A DNA stretch of 64,000 nt from positions 57,282 through 121,281 of the forward strand of contig NBIV01000231.1 of the NCBI GenBank assembly GCA_003194525.1. The letters are read 5' to 3'. Every line of letters starts with the position of its first letter. Position 1 is the stretch's first letter. This DNA is from Gracilariopsis chorda (lineage: Eukaryota; Rhodophyta; Florideophyceae; Gracilariales; Gracilariaceae). The notes beneath the pieces were generated by a model. The model did no database searches, was not told the origin of the DNA, and worked only from the letters and a program-made list of their open reading frames with translations. The position numbers and the translations under genes were made by a program. Positions 38,564-60,406 of this stretch are shown in pieces.

Positions 38564-41500
38564 CTACAGCCAGTGGATGTGTCCTAGAGACTTTGACATA
38601 ATTCGAAGTGCTTTGTCTTGCACGTCTTGGGCTATGGAAGTTGAGGGTGCCACAGCTGGTTCTGAGGATGTTGAAGGTGGGTGACATTCTTTCTGAGACA
38701 CTTCCTGGGATGAATGTGGGCTTGTCCTCGCTCGCTTTCTCGTGCGCTCCAAGCAGCTTTTCTTTCTCCTTTATGCCCTGTGGCGTCCATTTTTTGGTGG
38801 ACGGATCCCTGATGAACTGAAATCTTTTGTAGAAGACGATGGATGCAGTAAAGTGACAGTGTTCTCTGTTTCTTCCGCGTGTTCTGTTAATGAAGCCAGC
38901 CTTGTTTTAAAGGTACCTTTAGCTTCGAAGTGTGTCGCTTTTCCTAGCTGAATTTCCGCGATGGCATCCCTTAAAAGACGTAGAACTCCACTCACCGCAA
39001 CACGTCCAATTCCAGTAGCTTGTCGATTTTAAGCATCGTAGAGGTTTTTTCCTTCCATGTACGTATTGTACCCATCTACTTCCGAGTCTTCTCTACTGGT
39101 TCTAAGTATATCTGAGTCAATGGGGATAAACTCTTTCTCCGTCGACTCATCAAAAAGGCGTAGTCGGTAATCCATCTCCTCGTTGTTGAAGTATCTGGTC
39201 TCTGACCTGAGTTTCGCCAAGTATGGGACTGTCATAGCAGAAGTATCTTTTCTCCAGTATGTAGAGAAAAGCGCTTCAAGAGGTATGAGGTATCCTAGTA
39301 TGTTTCGTAGTTCAGGGAACCGCGGACGTTCTTCCTGATAAACCACAGCACATCGAACCATGTGACGACAAGCAAAACCAACGGAACAGGGCTGCCCACA
39401 GGAACAGAAACCAATAAACTCTGCCTTAACGTCATCCCCCGACCCCGTATACCTTTTTGAGAATTGCACAACAGTCTCCTGTGATGAGCGCTCTTCATCC
39501 ACCGACGCATTCCGGCTCTGACTCAGATGGCTTCCCCATTTCAACTTAAAGCGAGCTACAGGTCCCATTGCTGGGGTTGAACTACTTTCCAGGTTTCTGA
39601 TTGCTTCTAGCCACGCTTCCTGTGAATAATCCACAACCTCTGTGCTGGAAAGAATGTAGTTCTTCGAGGGCTTAAAGCTCAAATCTACGAAGTGCGCCAA
39701 GGCGTAGTTCGTGTACTCAGCCACCAGGCTGTCTACAACTTCTACAGGTAGAAAGTGCTCAAGCACTCTTGTCTTCCGATATCTCCCAATTTGAGAAGAT
39801 AAGGTTCTTACAAGCTCCAAGTTCCGGGTATCAGCCCGTTCTTGGGATATACGCCGAACCTCCAAAGGAACCTTGCACAAGGGAATCTTCTTCGATATAA
39901 TGATCTTCTTGTATGCAGAGTTAGAAGATTCGGTGTAGCCAGTTCCTTGGAACATGTAACGGGTAGGTATAGCCGCATTTCGGAAGCAAGACACCAGCAT
40001 ATGCGGCTTATAGTGTTACACGTACTTATACCACACAGGGAGACGATCGTCAAAAGCATCAAAGTACTTGGATTCTAGCATTCTTCTCCTTTCGAAAAAC
40101 GTTTCCGACGTATATGACTTTCTGAGGTTGAACAGGTCTTTCTTCATATCGTGCATCCACTCCATCTTACCAATCTTTCTACACCAATTGGCCACATTCT
40201 TCTTCTGATTCTCGTTCAGATGTCATTCGTCGAGGCTTATACAGGACGAATTGAACAACTTCTCAGCTGCATTTATACACGCAGTGTTCTGGTCCATCAC
40301 TACCATCGCCGGTGAGACGGCGACTATAGACTTGAAGTATGACAGAATTCGTACGAAGTCCTCTTCCGTTTCGGAGCACATGTACCCCATGAAAAATGTC
40401 AACACATGACCATCATTGACTCTTCCATTAATGGTGACCAGAGGGAAACCGTATCTATTGGCTATGGCTTTACAATCAATAGATACCCCCGGAACAATGC
40501 CGAACTTCTGGTAGTCTTCCATCCACTCTCGAAACGACCAACAAGCGTACTTCATCCTACCCGAATCATCTGCAGCGAAGAATCCCTTATTCCCTGCATC
40601 CTCCTGGCTCAACGAAAAGAGCAGATCACACAACCCTACACATTCCAAATCGCAGGGATTGCTTGTGGAGAAAGCATAACTCAACTTCTTCCTCGCCGAT
40701 ACCGGATTTATCTTTTGATTGTACTTGTCTTCCAGGTATCGTATGGTATCTCTAAAGCTCATATGCAAATCGCTCGTCATATGTATCGCTTCAGAACGCA
40801 TTTGCGGCTTGAGATGTCTAATAACAAAGCTCCCAGAGGGACCATGTCCATGTTTACAACCATTTAAATTAGCCACCTAGATCATTCCACCATCTTCCTC
40901 CTGCCCAGAATCCTCCGTCTTAATCGTTATCGAGAAGAGGCATCGCCTCATCTTGTTATTGTATTGATCGAACTTCAAGATTCCCTTCTTCAGCACCCTT
41001 CTATTCCCACGTTCAGCACCACGACTCTTCGGAGACTTTGCCTTATCCGGAGATCGCTTTCGTTCTCCAAAGTATATAGAAGTCCTTACGAATATGCTGT
41101 ACCCGAAGCAGTCCGCAATAAATTGAACTTCCTTCAGAACCGTGACACCAGGAGCATTGAGAGGAAGGGTTTCCAGATAGGCTAAGACAGTTGCTTTAAA
41201 ACACTCCTCAATTCTCTCATTCGGTATCGTGTTCTATACGGATTCCTAGCCCAGTTCTTCATCACCATCTTCTGTCCAGTACTTTTCGTCCTTCTCTCCA
41301 AGGCCATCCTTCTCCTTTGATTCTGATTCTTCTTCATTCAGGATGCCACCATCAGAGTCTTCGAAGAAGCATGAAGGAACCTCCTCCTCGTCATCTAAGA
41401 ATCGATCAATGAGCAGCGCCTCCTCTTCTTCAACGGATTGCTCATCTGAAACCTGCTGCGCATATGCAACGTTTGCGTTGAGAGTTTCACTCTCTTCAAT

Positions 41501-44473: not shown

Positions 44474-47400
44474 CTATGTTGCTGAGTCGCTCCCACCTGC
44501 AGTATACCTCATTGGGCATCCCCATTGGACTAATAGCTCAAAACCATTGGGTCCATCGTGGATATGACACAGCGAGTTAGCAGTCTGTACCTCTGTCTCG
44601 TTCATGCGCGCATACTGAAGCAATGCTGGATCAGGTTTCTTGCGATCTACGTCTGCACGGTACATTATCATTCTGGATACATGCACCAAATGTTTTCTTT
44701 GATCAATGATGTATTCGACTTAAAAAACCTAACCTAGCTTGCTGGAAACAACACGGTGCGGGTCTTTCCACATGAACTGCAAATTGTGGGTCCTTTGTGA
44801 TCGTGCTTCTCTAACCAAAACAAAACTGCCAACCTCTATTTCGCTACGGCGTATATTGGTCTTTTTATCATGACGCTCTACACTTCTTATCCGGTTCTTG
44901 TTCACTGTCGACTCGACATCTCTATGCATGTCGTACAGTGTCTTTTGAAGTTCATCGACCATAATAAGCTGCCTCATGCGGATTTCATCCTGACATGTAG
45001 CGTGAGCAAACTGCTCGACTGGCCACGCTATCATAAGTGGCCTCAAGGAAACATGTCCAGTAAAAACTTCGAGCTGTGTGCGGTATACGAGAGGTTAGTC
45101 ACTGCTGCAAATGCCAAGACGCTTCAGAGGCGCATTATTCAGTACGCTCTGAACACTCTCTGCAACTCGTGGCCATTCGTTCTTCTTGATCTTCCACTCC
45201 AACAGAAGAGCTTTGCAGGCTCTTAGCACTTCTCGACAAACCCTCTCCACTGACCCATTGCTACAAGGACAGTATGGCGTCGTAAAGTAATGCAAGTAGT
45301 GGAACGCTTCAGAAAGCCGATGTAGTAACTGATTCTTAAAGTATGCAACTTGATCAGATACAAACCAGTCCCAGCCCCCAAATAAAGCGATCCACATGCT
45401 CAGTGCTTTGGTGACTGCTGTGCTGTCTCTCTTTATGCAGGGCCACAGCCACACATAAGATGAAAGGTCATCACGAATAGTTAGAATATACTTCTGCTGC
45501 GTCGTGCTCTCTCTCATGAAAAGGAAATCGCAGTGAAGAACTTCATTGCGTCTTGTGGCATGGATGGCACTTCCAAATGGATGGGGGATCCGCATGCCCG
45601 TTCGAAAGACAATGCAGTGTATGCATCTTCTGATGAAGTACATCACATCACGTCTTTGTGTTTTCCAGAACACTTGTTCACGCAACACGCTGATGGTCGC
45701 GTCCACTCCACGATGCCCACCGAATCTGCAGTGCGCTACGACCATGAACTTCAGCATCAGTTCTTGTCCGCTTCTGAAATAAGAACACCATTCCCAACCA
45801 TCCAGGTTTTTATAGTGTTAATCCAGGTCTAATTCGTACAGTGGTTGGCCGCTATCACTGCTTTTGCTTGAGATTCTCTAACCGTGTATACAGTCCGCCA
45901 CACGAAATCCTTCGGGTTAGGTACAATTTGTTTGGCTCTCATGACCAAACTGTGAACTGGTCCGATAGATGTTTGACGTGTTCGGTAGGATTTGGTCCAT
46001 CTTGTTTGCATGTCTGCAAAGATATTGTGCTTCCCAAGAATATGCTTGATCGTGTAATCAAACTGGGACAGATATAGTGCCAATCGTTGCACCTTAGTGA
46101 TGGCATGGCGTCCCAATGTTGACACAAAAGCATGGGGATGGAACGCAAAAATCAGATTGCGGTGATCAGTGTAGACATGAACTGCATTCTCGCCCAGAAA
46201 GAAGTAGTCCAGCTTTCGAAACACTTGATATATTGCGTACGCTTCCTTTTCAGGTGTACTCCATCTTTGCTGAGAGGAAAAGAATGCTTTACCAACGAAA
46301 GCGAGAGGTAAGTGAGCCTGATGGTTAATCTCCTTATGCAGTTCCGAAGGGTGTACTTGCGTCACCACTCCAGACCAGTACTTCTCAGAAGCGTCCGCCA
46401 TGATAAATTGAGGTGATCAGGTTTGGGATAAGACAACTGTACGGCATTGCGAAATCGCTGTTGAAGAGTCTTGAAAGCTGCTTCGTGCTCTGCTGTCCAG
46501 CCCAAATGTGTCAAGGGTATGTGTTGACTTGACTTTTTCGTCCGCTTGGACGATATCTTGTATGCTTCTTCCAGAACTTCACTTAGCTTATCTAGCAACT
46601 GTGTGGCGTCCGGAATGCATTGATACATCCACCAAACGCAGTGTAGAAACTCACAGTGCTCTGCAGCGGCTTGGGGCGTGTCAATATGTTTCAGAGCCTC
46701 AACACGGGTAGGTTCAAGGCGATAACCGTTCTCGTTGATTATTCTGCCACACCATTTCACCTCTTTCTTGAAGAATGAACTCTTCTTAATTGCGATATAC
46801 AGCCCCTTCTCCACGCATATCTGAAAGAACCGTTCCAGTATGTCAAGTAGCATTGCCTCATCTTTGGCATGGATGATAAAATCATCAATTCAAAGTTCAA
46901 AGTTGTCCTGCAGCTCCGCGAAGGCTGTTTGGACGCATCGTTGAAAGTGTGGTACTGCATTCGTTAGGCCCATAAGTACTCTTCGTGACGAGTATATTCC
47001 TGTCGAGCTGATTACACCGCAATTATCGTAGGAGTCCGGGTCAGAAGGAACTTGCCAATATCCGGACACAATAATGGCAAAGACCTTGCTTCCGGCGAAG
47101 TCATAGATTTCTGAATCGACATAAGGCATTGGCCAGACGATCTTCTCAGTGGCAGAGTTGATGGGGCGTAGGTCTACATTCATCCTGAATTCTGCTTTTG
47201 AGCTCAGTTTCGCGACGACTAATGGCGCGGCGAGCCACTTTGCCTCCGGATATGGCATCACAAAGTTCATGTGCACGAGCTTCTGTATAAAAGCATCCTG
47301 GAATATCCGCTGTGCTGGCGGGGACTTGCGCGCTTTCACCCTAATTGGTTTCCTTTGTTTACATGTCTCAATACGCAGCGGAGGAAAGCTGGTCGGGGGT

Positions 47401-47593
47401 GACTTTCCCAGCCTGAACCGAAAACCCGCTTATACTTAGTGAAACACTCGTCAAGAAGCTCTTGTTCTGTTTTCGATAGATTTTTCTCTCTGCAGTCGTC
47501 TAGTGATTTGTACATCACAGCTCTTATATCCGAGTCTTCGCCGACATCCAGATACACATGTTCATCATCGATATCATCCTCGTCATAATTCAC
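44474..47593 (-). pseudogene. pol: GypsyF pol: RT, RNase H, integrase, chromo-like end
   Basis: Read leftward from the GypsyE junction. RT: ECFTKYKRVFG, APLVVAKLSSKAEFRMNVDL, IIVSGYWQVPSD, LMGLTNAVPHFQRCVQ, then a stop and IDDFIIHAKDE in place of the YxDD motif. RNase H: MADASEKYWSGVVTQ, STPEKEAYAIYQVFRKLDYF, HVYTDHRNLIFAF. Integrase at 45757-45095: GHRGVDATISVLRE, FIRRCIHCIVF, EVLHCDFLFMRES, DWFVSDQVAYFKNQ, PCSNGSVERVCREVL. At 44689-44474 HIHDGPNGFELLVQWGCP looks like a chromodomain relic. This is a Ty3 lineage distinct from A-E. Gag and 5' LTR are not present to the right; GypsyE cuts it at 47593. Confidence 0.85.
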
Positions 47594-48485
47594 TGTGGTG
47601 CAATGCCCGGCGACGGGAGAACACCACGAAGACGTTCGGGATCTTCCTCTCACGAGGTGAACGCAGTAGCAGAGCCCTCCCAGGGATGACACGACTAGGT
47701 CGGTTGTAAGCCGAGGTCAGCCTTCACGACTTGCGTAGGAAGGGGTAGCTGGCAAACCAGAGAAGCTCCGTCCACACGGTGTATTGCTCCAAGTAGGAGG
47801 CACGAGTCCAAACGGTGGCGCACACGACAATGAGTCGGTGTGAGCCGCGGATAGCGGGGGCTACCCAAAAAGGGGGAAAAGGAAAAGGAAAAGGAATAGG
47901 GAAGTGAGGGAAAAGGGGGCGAGTCACAAGAGGGACTCGATGGATGTCGGCAGGGCCAGATGAAACCGTATACACGGCGAAGCCACAACTGTGAGTAGAC
48001 TGGTATCCCAGAAATGGGTTCTGTTAAGCGAGAAAGGGGTTTGAGCAAACCGTATGCAACGGGATACCTCTCCGTGGTGGAGTCGAGTACCGCCGAAGGC
48101 ATGAATGTTCAGAGCCAAGTCCTTGGTTAGACACCCTCCTTCCGGAAGATTCTAAGCAGGAACACCATTGTTGGGGAAGTTTACTGAGGTGCAGCGGCAG
48201 TTGCCGCTACACTAAGTACATTAGACTACCCAGTGTAATAACTAAACAAATAAATAAATAAATAGAATATTTCTAACCATGTATCCACTACTGTACCACC
48301 ACCCGTGTGACACGTTAGCGAGCCGTTGCCACGGCGCATTCCGGCTATGCCGTGCACCACGTGTATGCCCACTGTCGCCGCATTGCTCCTGTTCATAACA
48401 GTGTAGTAAGTGCCATCCGCGATGTATCGGAAATTATGAACCAGTGCCTGGAATCCCCCCCCTTGAGAAGGGCGTGCACTACACA
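47594..48485 (-). repeat. GypsyE 3' LTR
   Basis: TGTGGTGCAATGCCC to GTGCACTACACA on the plus strand, near-identical to 59516-60406. Its inner edge is met directly by the polypurine tract and, on the opposite strand, by the open frame of the antisense ORF. Confidence 0.92.
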
Positions 48486-48505
48486 TCCCCCTCCTTAGAC
48501 GGAGC
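48486..48505 (-). other. GypsyE 3' polypurine tract
   Basis: In the element sense GCTCCGTCTAAGGAGGGGGA lies directly before the 3' LTR. Seventeen of its bases recur at 53085-53101. Confidence 0.8.
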
Positions 48506-48662: not shown

Positions 48663-50447
48663 ATGTCTAAACTTCCTCCCAACCGTCCTCCCCGCTATCG
48701 CGGTGGCTTCACCGGCTTCCGGTCCGTTCCGCTTCCGAACAATTCGGCTCCACCTGCATCGCGGAACCATTCGCCCGCTCAGCCGGTTCAGAACCCTCTG
48801 CCGTCGGCGGCTGCTTCGTCGCAAGGAGCTGCATCCGGCTATGACGATCGTCCCATCGCGGGTATCTTCCCAGGGCAGACGCCACCACCGGTGTGGCCGT
48901 TGTACGACGCCCTCATCGGGGCAGATCCGAGTACTCGGCGTGGGTGCCTCATGCTGAGGCATGCGCCCTGGTTCCATCCGCTTGCCGTCCGAGACGAGGA
49001 TCTCATCGCGTCGTACGCGGATACTGTTAACACCTTTCCGGGGGACCTGCCTGGCATTTTCACCATGTCCTGGGACTGGCGCCAGCGTATTGCGATCTCG
49101 GTTCACCATGTTCGCCGAAATTCGGGGGAATCCGCGGTTACCGCGCATGCCGCTTTCGTCCGCGTGTCACACCTCCGGCAACGCCGGGCACCGTTCGAGT
49201 TCCCCATCCGGGAGGAGCAGACCCTTGACGTTCTGATGTACCGCACTCGCGGGGAGATGGGCTACTGCGACCGCCTTGCGGACTTGGAAACCTTCGCCTG
49301 GAGGAACGTTCCGGTTGCCCGGCAGGAAGCCCTGTGCTGGGTGCGACCCATTCTCCGAGCGGAGTTCCGATTCCTTCCCCGGACTACCCGGTCTGCCTTC
49401 GTACAGGACTTCATCCGCGATGAGCGGCGTTGGCGAGCCCGTTTCGGGTACTTCGTGCCGTATCAGAACACGGAGATCGAGCGCATTGCGGCACGCCACC
49501 GACGCGGTCGGTACGTCACCCTCCCTGAGTGGTGGTCCTCCTTGGAGGTGTGCTGGGGCTGCTTCGTTGAGCTGCCTCCGGTACTCACCTACCTAGGCTC
49601 CTCCATGTTGTGGGATCCCCGCTCGGGGCTGTGGTCCGTCGTCATTTCTGAGTGGGCCGTCCGCGTTGCGGCGTATATCCTCGCAGAGGCGTATGACCAG
49701 TATCGACTCTGGTACATTCAGCCACGTGTGCGGGCTGCCATCAGGAGTTTGGACCTGCGTGTCCCCCTTGGGGGTGAAGCGAACGTCGAAGACATGCTCT
49801 CGCTACTCGATTACATCGAGGGTGTGGACTGGACTGCAGTGCCCCTGGCCAATGCCCAGCGCAATCACTTGCGAAGCGGCTATGGCCCCGGTTTCGGGCG
49901 CAATACCCCGCTTGCGGGCGATTACATCTTCTTCGATCCCTGGGACTTCCGGGAGCTCACCCGCGCCGAAGCAGAATCATACCGGGATGCCCCGAGAGAG
50001 GTACCGGAAGACCATACGAGAGGCTACGTCGATGCCGACGATTATCACCGATCCTACATCGGGGGTCATCCCATGGTGGATAATGATCCGGACGATCCGG
50101 TAGATGCTGTCGTGGACGGGAGCGAGGCCGACGGAGTCGTGGGTGGCGCGGTCGATGGCAGCAACGGGTTCAATTCCGGCCCGCCGGTCCCGACGAGTGC
50201 GAAGGATCCTCCGGCAATGCCGGTTCCTGCTACAGCTCCCCCGGTTGCCCCGAGTCCTACTTATCCGGCTATACCGGCTGTTCCGGCAGTTCCGGTGGCG
50301 AATGACCCTGGTGGCGTCATCGCGCAGTTCCTCCGCGAGGTGGGGTTGAGCGCCAACGAAGTCACCGGTGACATTGCCGCGATGCGGGACACGCTTGCTA
50401 ACCGCCTTGGCGGGGGTCCCCCGCCGAGCGGTAACAATGGACAGTAG
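48663..50447 (+). CDS. GypsyE antisense ORF, unknown protein
   Basis: 594 residues from the first ATG (48663); the frame stays open upstream through the polypurine tract into the LTR (to about 48444) but without an ATG. Layout: residues 1-100 Pro/Ser/Arg-rich and disordered. Residues about 110-410 form a globular W/Y/R-rich core (DEDLIASYADTVNTFPGDL, DWRQRIAISVHHVRRNSGES, RGEMGYCDRLADLETFAWRN, RDERRWRARFGYFVP, LPEWW, AYILAEAYDQYRLWYIQPRV, AGDYIFFDPWDFREL). An acidic Asp-rich linker follows, then a Pro/Ala/Val-rich tail and a short end segment (GGVIAQFLREVGLSANEV). No signal peptide, membrane helix, zinc site or known domain seen. Transcription would be antisense to gag-pol, from in or near the 3' LTR, and convergent with pol. 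The intact frame contrasts with the broken pol. Confidence 0.85.
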   Translation: MSKLPPNRPPRYRGGFTGFRSVPLPNNSAPPASRNHSPAQPVQNPLPSAAASSQGAASGYDDRPIAGIFPGQTPPPVWPLYDALIGADPSTRRGCLMLRHAPWFHPLAVRDEDLIASYADTVNTFPGDLPGIFTMSWDWRQRIAISVHHVRRNSGESAVTAHAAFVRVSHLRQRRAPFEFPIREEQTLDVLMYRTRGEMGYCDRLADLETFAWRNVPVARQEALCWVRPILRAEFRFLPRTTRSAFVQDFIRDERRWRARFGYFVPYQNTEIERIAARHRRGRYVTLPEWWSSLEVCWGCFVELPPVLTYLGSSMLWDPRSGLWSVVISEWAVRVAAYILAEAYDQYRLWYIQPRVRAAIRSLDLRVPLGGEANVEDMLSLLDYIEGVDWTAVPLANAQRNHLRSGYGPGFGRNTPLAGDYIFFDPWDFRELTRAEAESYRDAPREVPEDHTRGYVDADDYHRSYIGGHPMVDNDPDDPVDAVVDGSEADGVVGGAVDGSNGFNSGPPVPTSAKDPPAMPVPATAPPVAPSPTYPAIPAVPAVPVANDPGGVIAQFLREVGLSANEVTGDIAAMRDTLANRLGGGPPPSGNNGQ

Positions 50448-51911: not shown

Positions 51912-54900
51912 TTATCCCACTTGGGCGTTACACAGCGTAGCTGGGGTAGCGGTTCCCGCACGGCGGTGATATTGGACCACTTTGGATCGTGGGAGATGCT
52001 CGATAGGCTCCCACGTGTCCCAGTTGGGGTCGTAGCCGTACCAACGGGAGCGGTATTCCAACACGCCATATCCGTTATAACGGTGTCCCACGACTCGGTC
52101 GAGAATATATTCTTGGATGAAGACTTCCCGGCCTTGCCATGTTGTGGTTACACCGCTTGCAGTGCGGGTGCCCTCATGAGGGAAAATGTCCCGTAACAGG
52201 GTATCCGGGGCCAAGTCCGGTCGACGGCGTCTTCCCCGCGAGGGGCCGCAGGTCCATCATCGTGGTAATCGGCTCGCACCTTGAGGCGACGAGGTTCATT
52301 CCGTGCTGACGGTAGCGCTTGCGCGTGTCCCAGAGGGGTGCTTCCGTGCTGCACGGTGAATGGCACAGGCGGCGCCTCCCTAATCTGGGGTTCACGTGAC
52401 GTCAGTGACGGTTGGCGGCCACGGGGCGTGGTATGATCCGCCTCCCTGTCTAGGGTATCTACCCACGGCGACGCCGTGCGTTGCGTGTGCGACGCTCCGT
52501 GGTCCACGGTGAAGTCCTTCTGTAAACTCCCCACTGGGGCTTGTGCAGATGTTAGAGAGCCTGGCGACTTGGGTGAAATTTCCCGAATCGGGTTTTCCAT
52601 GCCGTCCTCGACGGTAGCGCCATCCGGAACGACCGGTTCGTTACTGGTGATCGTACCAGGGTCTACCGAGACGCTCGGATTGCGCGCGTGTGATCGCGAT
52701 GGTGCGGAGACTTCCTTCCCCTTCCCAGGGCGTGCGGTCCCGTTATCAACGGTTTGTGCTTTTGCCGAAGCGTCCTCTTCGGTAGAGGGCACTCTTGACG
52801 AGTCATGGCGTGTGTTCCCCTGCTGGGGCTTGCCACTGGCATCCAGCGCAGCTGGTTTAACACCTTCGCGTCCATGTGCGTCCTTCGACGGTGTCGATCG
52901 CGACGTGGCCGCTACCGCGGAGGGTTCCGTCACTGACGGGGACTGCGCGCCGATGTTGCGAACGGAAAGGGCACTGTTGGCGGTGTCCTGCGACTGCGCT
53001 GGAGCACTAGCGTTGCCAATCCGTGTCTCACGGCCTAAGTCCCGTTGCGACGGCGAATTACCCGCGATAGCGTGGCTTTCCTCTCCCTCCTTAGACGGAG
53101 CTACGGGGAGACGAAGACTTCGTGAAGTTACCGTGTGACGGTGGAAGATCCCGTTTGACGGTAGTTGAGAGCGGCCAGGAAGGCCGTTGGGGTCTGGCGT
53201 ATCCGGGTCTTCCGAGGTGAACGGAAGGTCTGAGAGGCCCCGGGAGGGGTGTGGTAGCACGGTAGGCCGTGTCACCACCGGTGTATCGGATGCAGAGCCA
53301 TATTCTAGCGTAGGATCCAGCGTAGCTGGTGCAGCCTCAGTCGAGGGTGGCGGGGCTAGCACGATGCGATCGCGAGATAACCGCTCATTCGCGTCACCCA
53401 TTTCCACAACCACTGTACCCGTCGTGACGGAGATAACCTTGAAAGGACCATCTGCCACAGGCGAGAGCTTATGGCGCTTCTCCCTTTCAGGGTTGTAATA
53501 CTCCTTGCGGACGAATACGAAGTCCCCGGAGTTGATCTGTTCCGGTTTGCCACCTCGCAAGCGAGCATCGAAATTCCGTTTGTAGACGGCTTGAGCGCGG
53601 TCCATCGCCTTCCGCGCTGCGGGTACCAGCTTGGTCAGCCATGTTTTCCACTTCTGGCGGTAATCCTTCACAGAAGGGAACGCGTCTAACGTAGGTTGGG
53701 ATTCCAACGCCATTGGCGGGGGTGTCCGTGAAAGGACCAACTCGAAAGGGGATATTCCGGTAGTCCGGTGTACCTGCGTATTGTACGCAAAGGTCACGGC
53801 ATCCGTGTAGAGATCCCAGGTCTTGGGGTGGTCAGCCGTGTAAGCACGGAGAGCTGCGAGCATTGTCCGGTTAAACTGCTCGACCTGCCCATTAGGCTGG
53901 GGATGATACGTGGTCGTGAAGAGATTCTTCACGTCCAGTATCCGACAGACGTCCTGGAAAAATCACGATGCGAACTGTTTCCCGTTGTCGGAGAGTAGCT
54001 CCAAAGGAGGTCCGTAGGCAAACACCCAATGCCGCACAAAAGCGTGAGCGACCGTGTAGGCGGTAATCCTCTTTAGAGGCACTGTCCGAACTAGTTTCGA
54101 GAACCTGTCCGTAATAACGAGTAGGAACTTGTTGCCTCTCCTGGTAGAGAGCAATGGTCCGAGAATGTCAATTGCGACAAACTCGAGCGGCGCCCTGGCG
54201 GGGAATAGCTTCATCCGTTTGGAGTTCTTCCGGAGTTTGACCCGGTTCTTCGCGCATTGAATGCAAAACCGCACCGTAGCGTAGCAATCAACCGCCATGG
54301 CGGGCCAGTAGAAATCCCTGCGAAGGGTTAGATAAAGCTTCCTCCCACCGGAGTGTCCACCGAGTTTCGGGTAATGCGAAAGATGCAATATCGGCTTCTG
54401 TAGCGTGTGCGGTACCACAACTTGTGGGATAGCCTCGACGGTCCTCACGAGGTAACCAATGTCGTTCACCCCGAAGGGGAGATTCTCTCCGCTGTTGAGG
54501 CGTGCACGTATCCTTGTACAGAAGGGGTCCCAGAATTGTTCTCGGATCATTTCCTCGGTCTCAACCGGTACATAATTTCCCGGTATGGGCTTCTCAGAAT
54601 CCTCGCTCGAGGCGAGTAAGTCGTCGTATTCAGAGTCCAATTCCCAGTCTTCTGGCCATTCCGGATCTTCTGGCGTATCTCCGTTAACCATGTAGCACGG
54701 TATCTTATCGTCATCCTCATTGGCGAGGGCTTCCCCCTCCGTGGGCAAACGCGACGGAGCGTCGGCTTGGGTGTTCTTCGCCCCCTTCTTGTAGATGACT
54801 TCGAAGTCAAATTCCGCTAAGCGGAGTCTCCACCGCATGAGGCGGCCAGATGGATCCGAGATGTTCATCAACCACCTCAATGAGGAGTGATCCGTGTAAA

Positions 54901-55381
54901 CGGTAAAGTGAACTCCCATGAGATAGGGGCGGAGTGTCGACAAAGCCCATACAACGGCCAGACACTCCTTCTCTGAAACAGAATAATTCCGTTTGTGAAC
55001 GTTTAGCGAACGTGACCAGTACCCAATCGGGTGTCGCTCCCCGTCCGGGGTGGTCTGGAACAGAGCACATCCGACCTGATGGTCGCTCGCATCCGTGTCC
55101 ACGGAGTATGGTAGTCCCGGTTTGGGCAACGCCAGGATTGGGGCTGACATGACAGCCTCCTTCAAGGAGTTGAAAGCAACACTTTGAGGGGAGGTAAGAG
55201 GGTCCAGTTTAGGTGGTTGTCCCTTCCGCAAGAGCGCGTTGAGAGGAGCTGCAACGTCCGAAAAGTTCGGGATAAACCGTCTGTAGACGTTGACCAGCCC
55301 TAAAAAGGAGCGCAGTTCCGTTTGAGTACGGGGTTCCTTCGCCTCCGCGAGGGACTTGACTCGAACGTCTTCGATTGACAA
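51912..55381 (-). pseudogene. pol: GypsyE RNase H, integrase, linker and chromodomain
   Basis: One frame 55381-53963: RNase H (SVDTDASDHQVGCALFQT, SEKECLAVVWALS, YTDHSSLRWL, NTQADAPSR), integrase zinc domain (HYPKLGGHSGGRKL, CIQCAKNR) and core (FVAIDILGPL, LLSDNGKQFAS). One TGA at about 53960 (GypsyD has Lys there), then YHPQPNGQVEQFNRTML, the GPFKVIS module and a 350-residue low-complexity linker to 52148. A frameshift leads to the chromodomain (QEYILDRVVGHRYNGYGVLE, SRWYGYDPNWDTWEPIEHLP) ending at 51912. Catalytic residues are all present. Confidence 0.9.
53085..53101 (-). other. Internal copy of the polypurine tract (candidate central PPT)
   Basis: In the element sense GCTCCGTCTAAGGAGGG, identical over 17 bases to the tract at the 3' LTR and continuing purine-rich (AGAGGAAAG). 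It lies about 7.3 kb from the 5' end, in the coding sequence for APSKEGEE. GypsyD has a similar tract at the same place (31727-31745). Confidence 0.6.
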
Positions 55382-55421: not shown

Positions 55422-56563
55422 TCAGTGAAAAAACTCGCACTTCCTCAGCTTGAGGGTAATTCCTGCGTCACGCAGCACGGTCAACACGTCTCGGACGTCG
55501 TCTAGATGGTCATCCATGTTGTTCGAGAAGATGATAATGTCATCCAAGTAGACCAAACAAGTCCGCCACTTAAAGCGGCTCATCAAAATGTCGATGGCCC
55601 GCTGAAAGGTGGCGGGTGCGTTGGTTAAACCGAACGGCATCCGCTTAAAGCGGTACGATCCTGCATGGCAGACGAAAGCCGTTTTGTCGCGGTCCTCCTC
55701 CCGAACGGGACTTGCCAATATCCCCAATTGGCGTCCAATGCTGTGAACACAGTGGCGCTATCCAGGGAGTCAATACACTCGTCCATACGAGGGATAGGAT
55801 ACGTGTCCCGTACCGTCACGGCATTGAGCCGGCGATATTCGATACAGAACCGCCAGGTTCCATCGCTCTTTAAGGCCAGTACAACTGGAGATGCCCACGG
55901 CGACTGAGCCGGTTCGATAACTCCAGCTAGGAGCATCTTCTCCACTGGGAACTGTTCTTCTTCCCGAGCCTTCGGTCCTGCCCTGTATGGGGGTTGCGCG
56001 ACGGGTCGCGTATTCGGCAACACGTCAATCCGATGTTCGGTTGCATTAATCTCCCCAAGGGAGCCATCCCACATAGTGGTGAACTCCCGTAACATGTCTC
56101 GCAGACGTTGACGGTGTGACTCCGGTACATGACCGAAGTCAAGGTCCTCCAGAGCCTTGATAGGATCGATTCTATCGTAGCTCGTAGGCACGTGCGTTCC
56201 TGTTTCAGGCGTTGATTCCGAGGTGCTCGGCGAATTGTCCGCTGGCGCGGTAGCCTCCTCCCCATCCTTAGACACGACGACGTCGGACTTCGAATCCTCT
56301 GCGGAGGCAACAATTCCGAGGACATCGGCAGCGGTAGTCTTCGTAGGAAGCATGGCCAGCGGGTGCGGCGTAACTGATCCAATCACTTGGTTCTTCACCA
56401 GATACTGGGGTTTTGTGCCAAGATTGGCGACAAGCAACCGGAACGGGACATCCGGAGTCACATTGACAATTCCGTTTGCAACGGCAAGTTGATACTTCTC
56501 GTACAACGAGGCAAGGGGTTGCACAATCCCAACACCGTGTTGACGGGAATTGACCTGCACCAT
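55422..56563 (-). pseudogene. pol: GypsyE reverse transcriptase
   Basis: Linker and RT start (PLASLYEKYQLAVANGIVNV, ATEHRIDVLPNTRPVAQPPY, PWASPVVLALKSDGTWRFC, ATVFTALDANWGYWQVP), then a 1-nt frameshift. The other frame carries YRFKRMPFGLTNAPATFQRA and CLVYLDDIIIFSNN with an intact YLDD. A second frameshift in a T-run (about 55425) precedes the RNase H frame. All RT motifs are otherwise present. Confidence 0.9.
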
Positions 56564-57270: not shown

Positions 57271-59440
57271 TTAGTTTCCCTGTGAAGGGGTAGATACGGG
57301 GTGCTGCCCCGGTTCCTCGACAACGAGAGCTGACGCCCGTTGAACGGGAGCTTCCGTTCTCACGGTGTTGGCCGCATCGCCGAGTGATCGAGCGTTACCC
57401 GATAAGCCGGAACAGTCCGCGCAAGCGGTGTTTGAGCCAAAGCATTCGGAAAATCCGTCTTCGCACGGAGATACGACGTCATCGGGACGGAATTCTTCTC
57501 CAATGGAGTGAGCGCCTCGTAGTTGGAGACTACTTTTGCCATCTCCCTCAATGAGAGGAGGCACTGTGGTGAGGTGTGCCCGTGCATATAGCACAAATGG
57601 CAAATGGCGGCACTGCTCCGCTTCGCAGCTCTGCGTTCCGAGTATCAGCAAACCTTCCCGCATTGCGGTTGTCAATCCAACCAGGCCGTTGATTACGGGT
57701 GAAGCCGTTTGCAAACGGAACTCGAGGTGCCTGCATGCGGTTGTTACCTACGTATAAAACCGTGTCACCCTGAGACGTTTCACGAGTGGACCCCGTCGTC
57801 GACGGCAATTCCGTGGTCGGAACCGACAGACCGTCGGCTTGCATAACCTGAACGTTATCGTATCCCTGTTTAGGGGCGTCGTCCGCTATAAGCGAGAGAG
57901 AAGGGGAGTTATTCTCCAACATCAACGCTTTCGCGGCTTTAGACCTGGCAGCAGGAGCACGGGCGCGGAGTGCATCACCCTCAGCTCGAGCAAACTGTAC
58001 GAGCTCGAGATAGGTGAGCTTCCGTTTCTCCTCCCGGTGACGGGCGACGAGGCTCTTATAGCCGGATCAAGTCCATCGATGAACATCGTGCAACGCTCCC
58101 CAGCGGGGTAGATATTACCACAACGGTGGAAAGCCTTATTCAGGCGTACCGAGTATTCGGTTTCGAGCTCACCTGAGCGTTGACGAGTATCTCGCAATGC
58201 GAGGATTGCCGACTGAATGGCGGTATTTGTTGCGTATGAGCGCAACAAATATTGAACTGCTTCAGGCCAGCAGGTGATCCTCCTTCGGAGGCTCGCGAGG
58301 ACCCTCGCACAGAGTTGTACTGGTCCTCGCGATTCCCCGTAAGAAATACGGCAGCGCAATGTAGGCCTGGCCTTCGTTCATTCCGAGAATATCGGCTTCC
58401 GCCACATAGCGTGCGAGGAAATCCAGAACCAAAATGGGGTCTTCTCCAGTAAAGTACTGGTTGCGGAGTGAAAGTTGCATCCGTTTGATACAGTCTTTCA
58501 CTCTACCCGTTCCACGGGGGGTACGCTCCAGTGAGGAGTCTTCCAGCCCATAGTATCGGTACGATAGAAGCTTCCTGTACAAGTTGTTGGTTGGCTTCAA
58601 CTCCTTGAGACCGGAATGTCTTCTACCCTTCGAACGGGAGCGAATCCCACCAGCGGTGGTATCAGACCGCTTGGAGCGGGAAGAACGCCTCGGCGATCAC
58701 CTTCAGGTTCAGAATCCGAGGATCGGAGGATCGGAGTGGCTCGGTGTAGAATCCGAAGATGTCGACGTGTCCGAATCAGTTCCATACTTCGGTTTCGACT
58801 TCCGCTTTTTTGCGGCGCTTTCGATCTCCCTTGCGCTCATCGCGCTGAGAAGCAATGACCGGCTCCGCCGGACGGGGCTGTACCACGTGAATGGTTCGCT
58901 CCAACGTCTCCAGACGGTTCCGTACCCGATTGAATCGGTCTTCAACTCCTTCCACGAAGGCTGCAGGGCTACCAAAGCACTCCAACAATTTGTTGGCGTC
59001 TAACCGGAGAATGCGGAGGTCCCGGCTATATCCTTCACAGGATGAGCCTCAACCACGCCTCGGAGAGCGGTAAACTCCCCAACAATGTGTCGTGAGCAGC
59101 GCGCAAGGCGCGAAGCTGCTCTTCCAGGTGGGATACCTGGGAGTTGTCAGCCTGCCCGGGTGTCGGGGATTGAACCGCTACAGCTGGGAACAGCCGTAGA
59201 CGATCCAGCACCTAGAGACAGGTTGTCCAACAGGGTTGGCGGAATATTCTGGTCTTCCGGTTGACGACTCGGAGGACGAGGTGGGGCCTTGGTTGCAAGA
59301 GTAGAGCCAGCCCGAATTGGGATTCTCGAAGCAACCCGGTCACCGGTAACAGCGCTGTCGCGGGAGCGACTGCGAGTGGTTACAGGTTCGGCATCCGAGG
59401 GCTTCCTCGACATAATGACCCGTCCAGACGGAGAGAACCG
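57271..59440 (-). pseudogene. gag: GypsyE gag
   Basis: Starts MSRKPSDAEPVTTRSRSRD at about 59413. Proline-rich N-terminus (APPRPPSRQPEDQNIPPT), a coiled-coil-like stretch (VEDRFNRVRNRLETLERTI), then the capsid region (LYRKLLSYRYYGLEDSSLER, DCIKRMQLSLRNQYFTGED, MNEGQAYIALPYFLR, YLLRSYATNTAIQSAILALR). A perfect CX2CX4HX4C knuckle (CHLCYMHGHTSPQC, about 57560-57600) follows. Five or more frameshifts, more than in pol. Confidence 0.82.
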
Positions 59441-59494
59441 AAACTTCCGATAAAGGCCTCGAAAGAGGAAACAACACACGATAGTGGTTAAAAC

Positions 59495-59512
59495 TTCTAA
59501 GTCAGGAGACCA
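59495..59512 (-). other. GypsyE primer-binding site
   Basis: In the element sense TGGTCTCCTGACTTAGAA, three bases after the 5' LTR, identical to the GypsyD site. Confidence 0.8.
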
Positions 59513-59515
59513 CTT

Positions 59516-60406
59516 TGTGGTGCAATGCCCGGCGACGGGAGAACACCACGAAGACGTTCGGGATCTTCCTCTCACGAGGTGAACGCAGTAGCAGAGCCCT
59601 TCAGGGATGACACGACTAGGTCGGTTGTAAGCCGAGGTCAGCCTTCACGACTTGCGTAGGAAGAGGTAGCTGGCAAACCAGAGAAGCTCCGTCCACACGG
59701 TGTATTGCTCCAAGTAGGAGGCACGAGTCCAAACGGTGGCGCACACGACAATGAGTCGGTGTGCGCCGCGGATAGCGGGGCTACCCAAAAAGGGGGAAAA
59801 GGAAAAAGGAAAAGGAATAGGGAAGTGAGGGAAAAGGGGGCGAGTCACAAGAGGGACTCGATGGATGTCGGCAGGGCCGGATGAAACCGTATACACGGCG
59901 AAGCCACAACTGTGAGTAGACTGGTATCCCAGAAATGGGTTCTGTTAAGCGAGCAAGGGGGTTGAAACAAACCGTATGCAACGGGATACTCTCCGTGGTG
60001 GAGTCGAGTACCGCCGAAGGCGTGAATGTTCAGAGCCAAGTCCTTGGTTAGACACCCTCCTCGGAAGATTCTAAGCAGGAACACCCTTGTTGGGGAAGTT
60101 TACTGAGGTGCAACGGCGGTTGCCGCTACACTAAGTACAGTAGACTACCCAGTGTAATAACTAAACAAATAAATAAATAAATAGAATATTTCTAACCATG
60201 TATCCGCTACAGTACCACCACCCGTGTGACACGTGAGCGAGCCGTTGCCACGCGCATTTCCGGCTATGCCGTGCACCACGTGTATGCCCACTGTCGCCGC
60301 ATTGCTCCTGTTCATAACAGTGTAGTAAGTGCCATCCCTGATGTATCGGAAATTATGAACCAGTGCCTGGAATCCCCCCCCCCTTGAGAAGGGCGTGCAC
60401 TACACA
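59516..60406 (-). repeat. GypsyE 5' LTR
   Basis: 891 bp, almost identical to 47594-48485. In the element sense it starts TGTGTAGTGCACGCCC and ends GGGCATTGCACCACA. Confidence 0.92.

What the first reader, a model, noticed from the sequence alone, without database searches (positions are those of the whole stretch)
48663..50447. Long antisense ORF between pol and the 3' LTR of a Ty3 chromovirus
Seen: an intact 594-codon frame on the strand opposite gag-pol, convergent with pol. gag, RT and pol in the same copy are already frameshifted. No recognised domain; a W/Y/R-rich core flanked by disordered and acidic arms. Known: extra ORFs between pol and the 3' LTR, some antisense, occur in a few plant elements (Grande-type) and antisense genes in deltaretroviruses (HBZ), but this protein fits none I know. 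Inference: an accessory, possibly regulatory or nucleic-acid-binding, retrotransposon protein.
Basis: partly seen in the sequence, partly recalled or inferred. Interest (0 to 1): 0.88.

Follow-up and report, generated by a model that had tools for sequence, protein, structure and literature searches.

The report
Antisense gene in seaweed retrotransposons
Retrotransposons of a red seaweed carry an extra protein-coding gene that runs backwards next to their far end, is kept by selection in many copies and matches no known protein family, so it looks like an accessory gene of the element whose function is still open.

Summary
Window 48663-50447 (+ strand) is an intact 594-codon frame, convergent with the broken gag-pol (- strand) of a 12.8-kb LTR element, starting 178 bp from the 3' LTR. 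The host is, by inference, the red alga Gracilariopsis chorda. It is not a one-off: four genome searches gave 203 distinct homologous loci, fragments included, in several deep lineages. Of 58 loci with a listed pol match within 8 kb, 57 are convergent with it. Chromodomain elements with this layout occur in lineages whose ORF protein is only 33-37% identical to the window's. dN/dS is 0.23-0.34 in 9 of 10 pairs of one large family and 0.27-0.29 between the window copy and six copies of other subfamilies; it is 0.4-1.8 within the old window family and 0.3-2.4 within very young families. No Pfam, PHROG, PDB-sequence or plant TRP28 match; structure prediction failed. Named relatives come from Gracilariopsis, Gracilaria and Agarophyton. 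[quoted passage not shown] this is a new, apparently unrelated family of that kind in red-algal chromoviruses. Best reading: an accessory protein from an antisense transcript that starts in or beside the 3' LTR and acts on the element's own expression or replication. That function is inferred.

The parts
47594..48485 (-). 3' LTR of the element (element lies on the - strand)
   Evidence: 869 of 897 columns identical to 59516-60406, TG...CA ends
48486..48498 (-). polypurine tract next to the 3' LTR
   Evidence: purine run on the - strand directly inside the LTR edge
48663..50447 (+). antisense accessory ORF, 594 codons from ATG; frame open from about 48399
   Evidence: conserved homologues
48963..49943 (+). 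conserved core of the protein (residues 101-427), rich in Arg, Trp and Tyr, almost no Lys
   Evidence: alignment of 9 sequences, composition of 5
49944..50315 (+). acidic, Pro-rich arm (residues 428-551)
50316..50420 (+). short conserved C-terminal segment (residues 552-586) after the acidic arm
   Evidence: alignments
51912..52214 (-). chromodomain at the end of pol
   Evidence: Pfam Chromo E 1.2e-8
52148..53932 (-). integrase C part and long tail (broken pol)
   Evidence: weak Pfam rows, below the curated cut-off
53963..55381 (-). RNase H, H2C2 and start of integrase core
   Evidence: Pfam, RNase H and H2C2 over the cut-off, rve just below
55422..56563 (-). reverse transcriptase pieces in two frames
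   Evidence: RVT_1 on 55625-56563 below the cut-off, E 2.5e-4
57271..59575 (-). gag remains, split over several frames
   Evidence: by eye against gag frames of other copies
59497..59512 (-). primer-binding-site-like stretch beginning TGG, 3 nt inside the 5' LTR
   Evidence: label from general knowledge
59516..60406 (-). 5' LTR

Best explanation
This is a genuine accessory gene of a clade of red-algal Ty3 chromoviruses. SHOWN: the elements have two opposed coding units, gag-pol from the 5' LTR side and the accessory gene from the 3' LTR side, with their 3' ends facing each other; the frame is conserved across deep lineages and under purifying selection. INFERRED from layout: the start codon lies only about 0.18-0.35 kb from the LTR, so the mRNA must begin inside the 3' LTR or in the short leader. 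INFERRED from the Arg- and aromatic-rich conserved residues, the lack of a convincing membrane segment and the analogy with Grande, Retand and HBZ: the protein acts in the nucleus or on the element's nucleoprotein and regulates the element's expression or replication in trans. The window copy itself is old and its gag-pol is broken.
For: Homologous frames at 203 distinct loci, fragments included (union). 57 of 58 loci with a pol row within 8 kb are convergent (145 loci had no listed pol row nearby). Of 19 fetched pol loci without an ORF row, 14 hold the ORF on the predicted strand. Same layout read in C161, C42 (two copies), C163, C172, C198, L029 and L030. dN/dS in the large family: 9 of 10 pairs 0.23-0.34; between subfamilies 0.25-0.40. 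Two disjoint large-family pairs: 59 synonymous to 48 non-synonymous changes, expected synonymous share 25.7%, P 1e-10; codon positions 28/15/64. ORF identity follows RNase H identity over 15 pairs of 6 elements (Spearman 0.90, pairs not independent). 65 of 75 rows and 56 of 73 have no internal stop (best-scoring rows only). A copy with 622 bp of its LTRs 100% identical (C161) has the ORF open.
Against: No transcript evidence. No fold: AlphaFold2 mean pLDDT 40.2 and 38.7; Foldseek best E 4.1. Within the window family dN/dS is 0.39-1.79 over 28 pairs; within three very young families 0.34-2.39 in 16 of 19 pairs, undefined in 3. The pair C161-C42b has 0 synonymous and 7 non-synonymous changes. 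Between-lineage dS is saturated or undefined. In 5 of 19 sampled pol loci no ORF was found in the stretch read, so some copies may lack it. Nucleic-acid binding is a guess: net charge of the core is only +2 to +5 and the C arm is -14 to -23.
Confidence: 0.55

Rival explanations
1. The protein is a structural or trafficking partner of the element's particle (for example a Gag partner or a nuclear-import factor of the pre-integration complex), not a regulator of expression.
For: Conserved core of about 330 residues with low-complexity arms; conserved along with RNase H; such roles are discussed for antisense ORFs in PMC7264820 (passages).
Against: No profile similarity to the elements' own gag (hhalign probability 0.1% or less); a gene on the other strand points to separate expression.
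Confidence: 0.22
2. It is an anti-silencing factor that counters host chromatin or small-RNA silencing of the element.
For: Only the need for separate expression and the many copies fit; nothing specific.
Against: No similarity to any family in Pfam; host silencing in red algae was not examined here.
Confidence: 0.12
3. The antisense RNA is what matters (interference or double-stranded RNA) and the protein is secondary.
For: LTR-driven antisense transcripts can act as RNA in retroviruses (PMC10186651, abstract and one section), and the idea is raised for plants (PMC7264820, passages).
Against: Amino-acid-level constraint and codon-position bias point to a selected protein.
Confidence: 0.05
4. 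Passenger, nested insertion or chance frame with no role.
For: The window copy sits in a decayed element and its own family shows dN/dS 0.39-1.79; 5 of 19 sampled pol loci showed no ORF in the stretch read.
Against: Shuffles, several lineages with the same layout, dN/dS well below 1 in the large family and between subfamilies.
Confidence: 0.03

Closest known systems
Antisense accessory ORFs between pol and 3' LTR of plant Ty3 elements: maize Grande gene23, rice RIRE2, Silene Retand ORF4 (TRP28)
   Same: Same place and strand relation, present in most copies; for Grande an antisense transcript from a promoter upstream of the gene and a nuclear protein are reported (PMC7264820 passages; PMC11963269 abstract, background, results in part and discussion).
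   Different: Retand is a non-chromovirus lineage (abstract), whereas these elements carry a chromodomain. No TRP28 match: 0 of 9 members at E<=1. Host is a red alga.
Boty (BcGypsy1) of Botrytis cinerea with antisense gene brtn
   Same: Antisense extra gene in a fungal LTR element (title of the 2011 paper in a reference list, and passages).
   Different: The sequence of brtn was not compared here; no protein named as fungal was among the hits of the three homology searches.
HBZ of HTLV-1
   Same: Antisense gene under a promoter in the 3' LTR (abstract).
   Different: No Pfam match at all for the window protein, so no bZIP (that HBZ is a bZIP protein is recalled); an algal retrotransposon, not a retrovirus.
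Sense ORF3 proteins of bdelloid rotifer LTR elements and env-like ORFs of plants
   Same: Extra ORF beyond pol (PMC5408684 passages; PMC7264820 passages).
   Different: The plant env-like ORFs are sense; here the ORF is antisense and has no convincing membrane segment.

Membership tests
Antisense accessory ORF class (aORF-3R) | Lies between pol and 3' LTR | tested here: met
   for window and C161/C42; pol side only in L029, L030
Antisense accessory ORF class (aORF-3R) | Antisense to gag-pol | tested here: met
   57 of 58 paired loci convergent; 31 of 31 paired among 74
Antisense accessory ORF class (aORF-3R) | Present in all or most copies of the family | tested here: inconclusive
   58 of 138 pol rows had an ORF row within 8 kb (capped lists); of 19 further ones read 14 had it, 5 not in the stretch read
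Antisense accessory ORF class (aORF-3R) | Shared by several species | tested here: met
   proteins named as from Gracilariopsis chorda, Gracilaria domingensis, Agarophyton chilense; their place in elements outside G. chorda was not seen
Antisense accessory ORF class (aORF-3R) | Antisense transcript and nuclear protein (reported for Grande) | not testable with these tools
   no expression data at hand
Retand / TRP28 (PF04195) | TRP28 domain in the antisense ORF | tested here: not met
   0 of 9 members match at E<=1; no match in the genome either, but the controls were silent too
Retand / TRP28 (PF04195) | Non-chromovirus element | tested here: not met
   chromodomain in window, L029 and L030
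Ty3 chromovirus | Order RT-RNase H-integrase with a chromodomain at the C end of pol | tested here: met
   Pfam hits
HBZ-type antisense protein | bZIP domain (recalled) | tested here: not met
   no such Pfam row
HBZ-type antisense protein | Promoter in the 3' LTR | not testable with these tools
   only inferred from the 178-bp distance of ATG to LTR
env-like ORF | Sense strand and transmembrane segment | tested here: not met
   antisense; highest 19-residue hydropathy 0.88-1.85 in 5 members, the 1.85 stretch (L029) holding Asp and Lys

The most novel reading that the evidence does not exclude
Red algae hold a large clade of two-way LTR retrotransposons: opposed transcription units from the two LTR sides, the second coding for a new protein family that arose independently of the plant and fungal antisense genes and is needed for the element's propagation, as trans-activator or anti-silencing factor. 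Antisense accessory genes beside the 3' LTR would then be a repeatedly evolved solution in at least three kinds of hosts.
Probability: 0.35. Interest if true: 0.8.

Novelty: new variant of a known kind. Interest (0 to 1): 0.58.

Why it matters
Antisense accessory genes of LTR retrotransposons have been described since the 1990s in some plants and in Botrytis, with no known function. Here is a separate family in red algae, in high copy number, several lineages deep in one 91-Mb genome, with young copies and measurable selection. That makes the question of what such genes do testable by comparison and suggests that the layout has evolved more than once. It also tells annotators that 'hypothetical proteins' such as BWQ96_03215 are retrotransposon genes.

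Tried and rejected
Homology: three searches of 5.8 billion proteins, two with profiles, gave 5, 7 and 5 proteins (only about 8000 candidates scored each time); one scan of IMG/VR gave none. Pfam, PHROGs and PDB-sequence searches gave nothing credible. Structure: two AlphaFold2 jobs with 8 and 7 sequences failed (pLDDT 40.2, 38.7). Gag duplication as the origin: no profile similarity. My first guess of an oomycete host (note) was wrong and was replaced. Chance-frame and passenger readings rejected. Literature: ten searches were answered; none listed a report of an antisense accessory ORF in red-algal or Gracilariales retrotransposons. The library holds open-licence papers only, and the G. chorda genome paper was not seen.

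Full report
What is there. The frame at 48663-50447 is on the + strand. The surrounding element is on the - strand: LTRs 47594-48485 (3') and 59516-60406 (5'), 869 of 897 aligned columns identical. A polypurine tract lies just inside the 3' LTR and a primer-binding-site-like stretch just inside the 5' LTR. Pol pieces give Pfam rows for RT, RNase H, H2C2 and integrase; RNase H and H2C2 pass the curated cut-off, RT and integrase core fall below it in this broken copy and pass it in L041, L029 having both as well. Pol ends with a chromodomain, so it is a chromovirus. Gag and pol of this copy are broken over several frames. No target-site duplication was seen (TTCAC against GACAG).

More than chance. 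In 500 dinucleotide shuffles of the LTR-to-chromodomain region the longest stop-free stretch was 377 codons; the real region has 653.

Host. The closest database protein, P0002, is named BWQ96_03215 of Gracilariopsis chorda, on a contig of 445,473 bases; contig C30 of the window's own assembly has that length and holds the corresponding copy, L006. I infer that the window is from G. chorda, a red alga (Gracilariaceae).

How widespread in the genome. The ORF protein gives 75 rows in the 91-Mb assembly: 8 of a window family (76-100% identity), 4 intermediate (63-66%), 62 at 57-60% and one 47% fragment. A distant homologue, P0006, gives 69 rows at other places; representatives of two further lineages give 73 rows each. 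The union is 203 distinct loci, fragments included; only the best candidates are scored, so this is a lower bound. Of these, 58 have a pol row within 8 kb among 138 rows: 57 are convergent and one is not (6.7 kb away, C629, probably a neighbouring element). An earlier count alone gave 31 of 31 paired loci among 74. 80 of the 138 pol rows had no ORF row nearby. From 59 such rows, 54 allowed a test; I drew 20, got 19 stretches of 701 bp at the predicted place, and found the ORF on the predicted strand in 14; 5 had none there. So the ORF is usual, but whether every copy has it is not settled.

Layout in other lineages. L029 (C117) holds gag (Retrotrans_gag), RT-RNase H, integrase with chromodomain, and a convergent 642-codon ORF whose stop is 163 bp from that of pol. 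L030 (C194) has the ORF convergent with a chromodomain frame. Their ORF proteins are 33% and 37% identical to that of the window. C161 has 622 bp of its two LTRs in the stretch held, 100% identical, with a 728-codon gag frame, a 1567-codon pol frame (other copies reach 1885, so it may not be complete) and the 609-codon ORF frame open: a recent insertion carries the ORF.

Selection. NG86 pairwise values: among five copies of the large family 9 of 10 pairs give dN/dS 0.23-0.34 at dS 0.05-0.09; the tenth pair (C161-C42b) has 0 synonymous and 7 non-synonymous changes. The window copy against six copies of other subfamilies gives 0.27-0.29; all such pairs lie at 0.25-0.40. Within the window family (8 sequences, 28 pairs) values run from 0.39 to 1.79, as expected of old dead copies. 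Two disjoint large-family pairs pooled: 59 synonymous, 48 non-synonymous, expected synonymous share 0.257, binomial P 1e-10; differences by codon position 28, 15, 64. The same test on two disjoint window-family pairs gives dN/dS 0.64 and P 0.04. Three very young families (4, 5 and 3 copies, 19 pairs) give 0.34-2.39 in 16 pairs and no value in 3, with very few changes; between their lineages values of 0.17-0.31 come with saturated dS and several undefined pairs. I read this as selection while the elements replicate and neutral change after insertion. ORF and RNase H identities rise and fall together over 15 pairs of six elements (Spearman 0.90; pairs not independent; the ORF evolves faster).

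The protein. Nine sequences share 65 invariant columns, 12 of them Arg and 6 Trp. In five members the core (residues 101-427 of the window protein) is 11-12% Arg with at most 1.2% Lys and 3.6-4.9% Trp; before it lies a Pro/Ser-rich N arm, after it an acidic C arm (-14 to -23), and a short conserved segment closes the protein. I saw no zinc-knuckle pattern by eye; Cys is about 1% of the core. No credible Pfam, PHROG or PDB-sequence relative, no similarity to gag. AlphaFold2 failed with the few sequences allowed.

How it most likely works. The start codon lies 178 bp from the LTR edge in the window, and in C161 the first two in-frame Met codons lie about 0.24 and 0.35 kb from it. An mRNA for the ORF must therefore begin in the 3' LTR or in this short leader, on the strand opposite to the genomic RNA. 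I infer separate control of this protein. For its action I think a regulator or nucleoprotein partner of the element most likely; this rests on analogy with Grande gene23, reported nuclear and with its own promoter (PMC7264820, passages), and with HBZ (PMC10186651, abstract and one section), and on composition. That step is not shown.

Compared with what is known. Antisense ORFs between pol and the 3' LTR are a recognised class in plants and in Botrytis Boty. Membership in the class by layout is met; presence in most copies is not settled. Membership in the Retand/TRP28 family is not met: 0 of 9 members match TRP28, and Retand is a non-chromovirus lineage. Homology to brtn of Boty was not tested. 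None of my ten literature searches listed such a gene in red algae; a paper on Gracilaria genomes searched for the words transposable, LTR, Gypsy and retrotransposon held none of them (PMC10388701). That covers open-licence papers only.

Verdict. Real, selected and conserved; a new protein family in a known kind of arrangement and in a new host group. Function open.

Noticed in passing
L019 (C172) against L024 (C161), and window 53.2-54.0 kb against L024: Mosaic elements: C161 and C172 are 94-98% alike in the accessory ORF and 95-99% beyond the integrase, but only 73-80% in the integrase stretch, while the window's integrase stretch is 96.5% like that of C161 although their ORFs are about 70% alike. 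Integrase modules appear to be exchanged between families.
   Followed up: partly
window 44729-47692: Remains of another Ty3-type pol on the - strand (RT 46890-47339, weak; integrase 45095-45757) directly beside the 3' LTR; no target-site duplication is visible around the element.
   Followed up: no
window about 48248-48264 and the matching place in the 5' LTR: AATAAATAAATAAATA-like run on the + strand of both LTRs, which could serve as a polyadenylation signal for transcripts on that strand; unproven.
   Followed up: no
window 39029-40876: Two - strand frames that look from memory like a MULE transposase with a SWIM-type Cys/His motif; the first had no Pfam match at E<=1, the second was not tested.
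   Followed up: no
P0004 (Gracilaria domingensis FGB62_50g12), P0002 (G. chorda BWQ96_03215): Accessory ORF homologues are annotated as host hypothetical proteins; P0004 lacks a conserved stretch found in the others, possibly a wrong gene model.
   Followed up: partly
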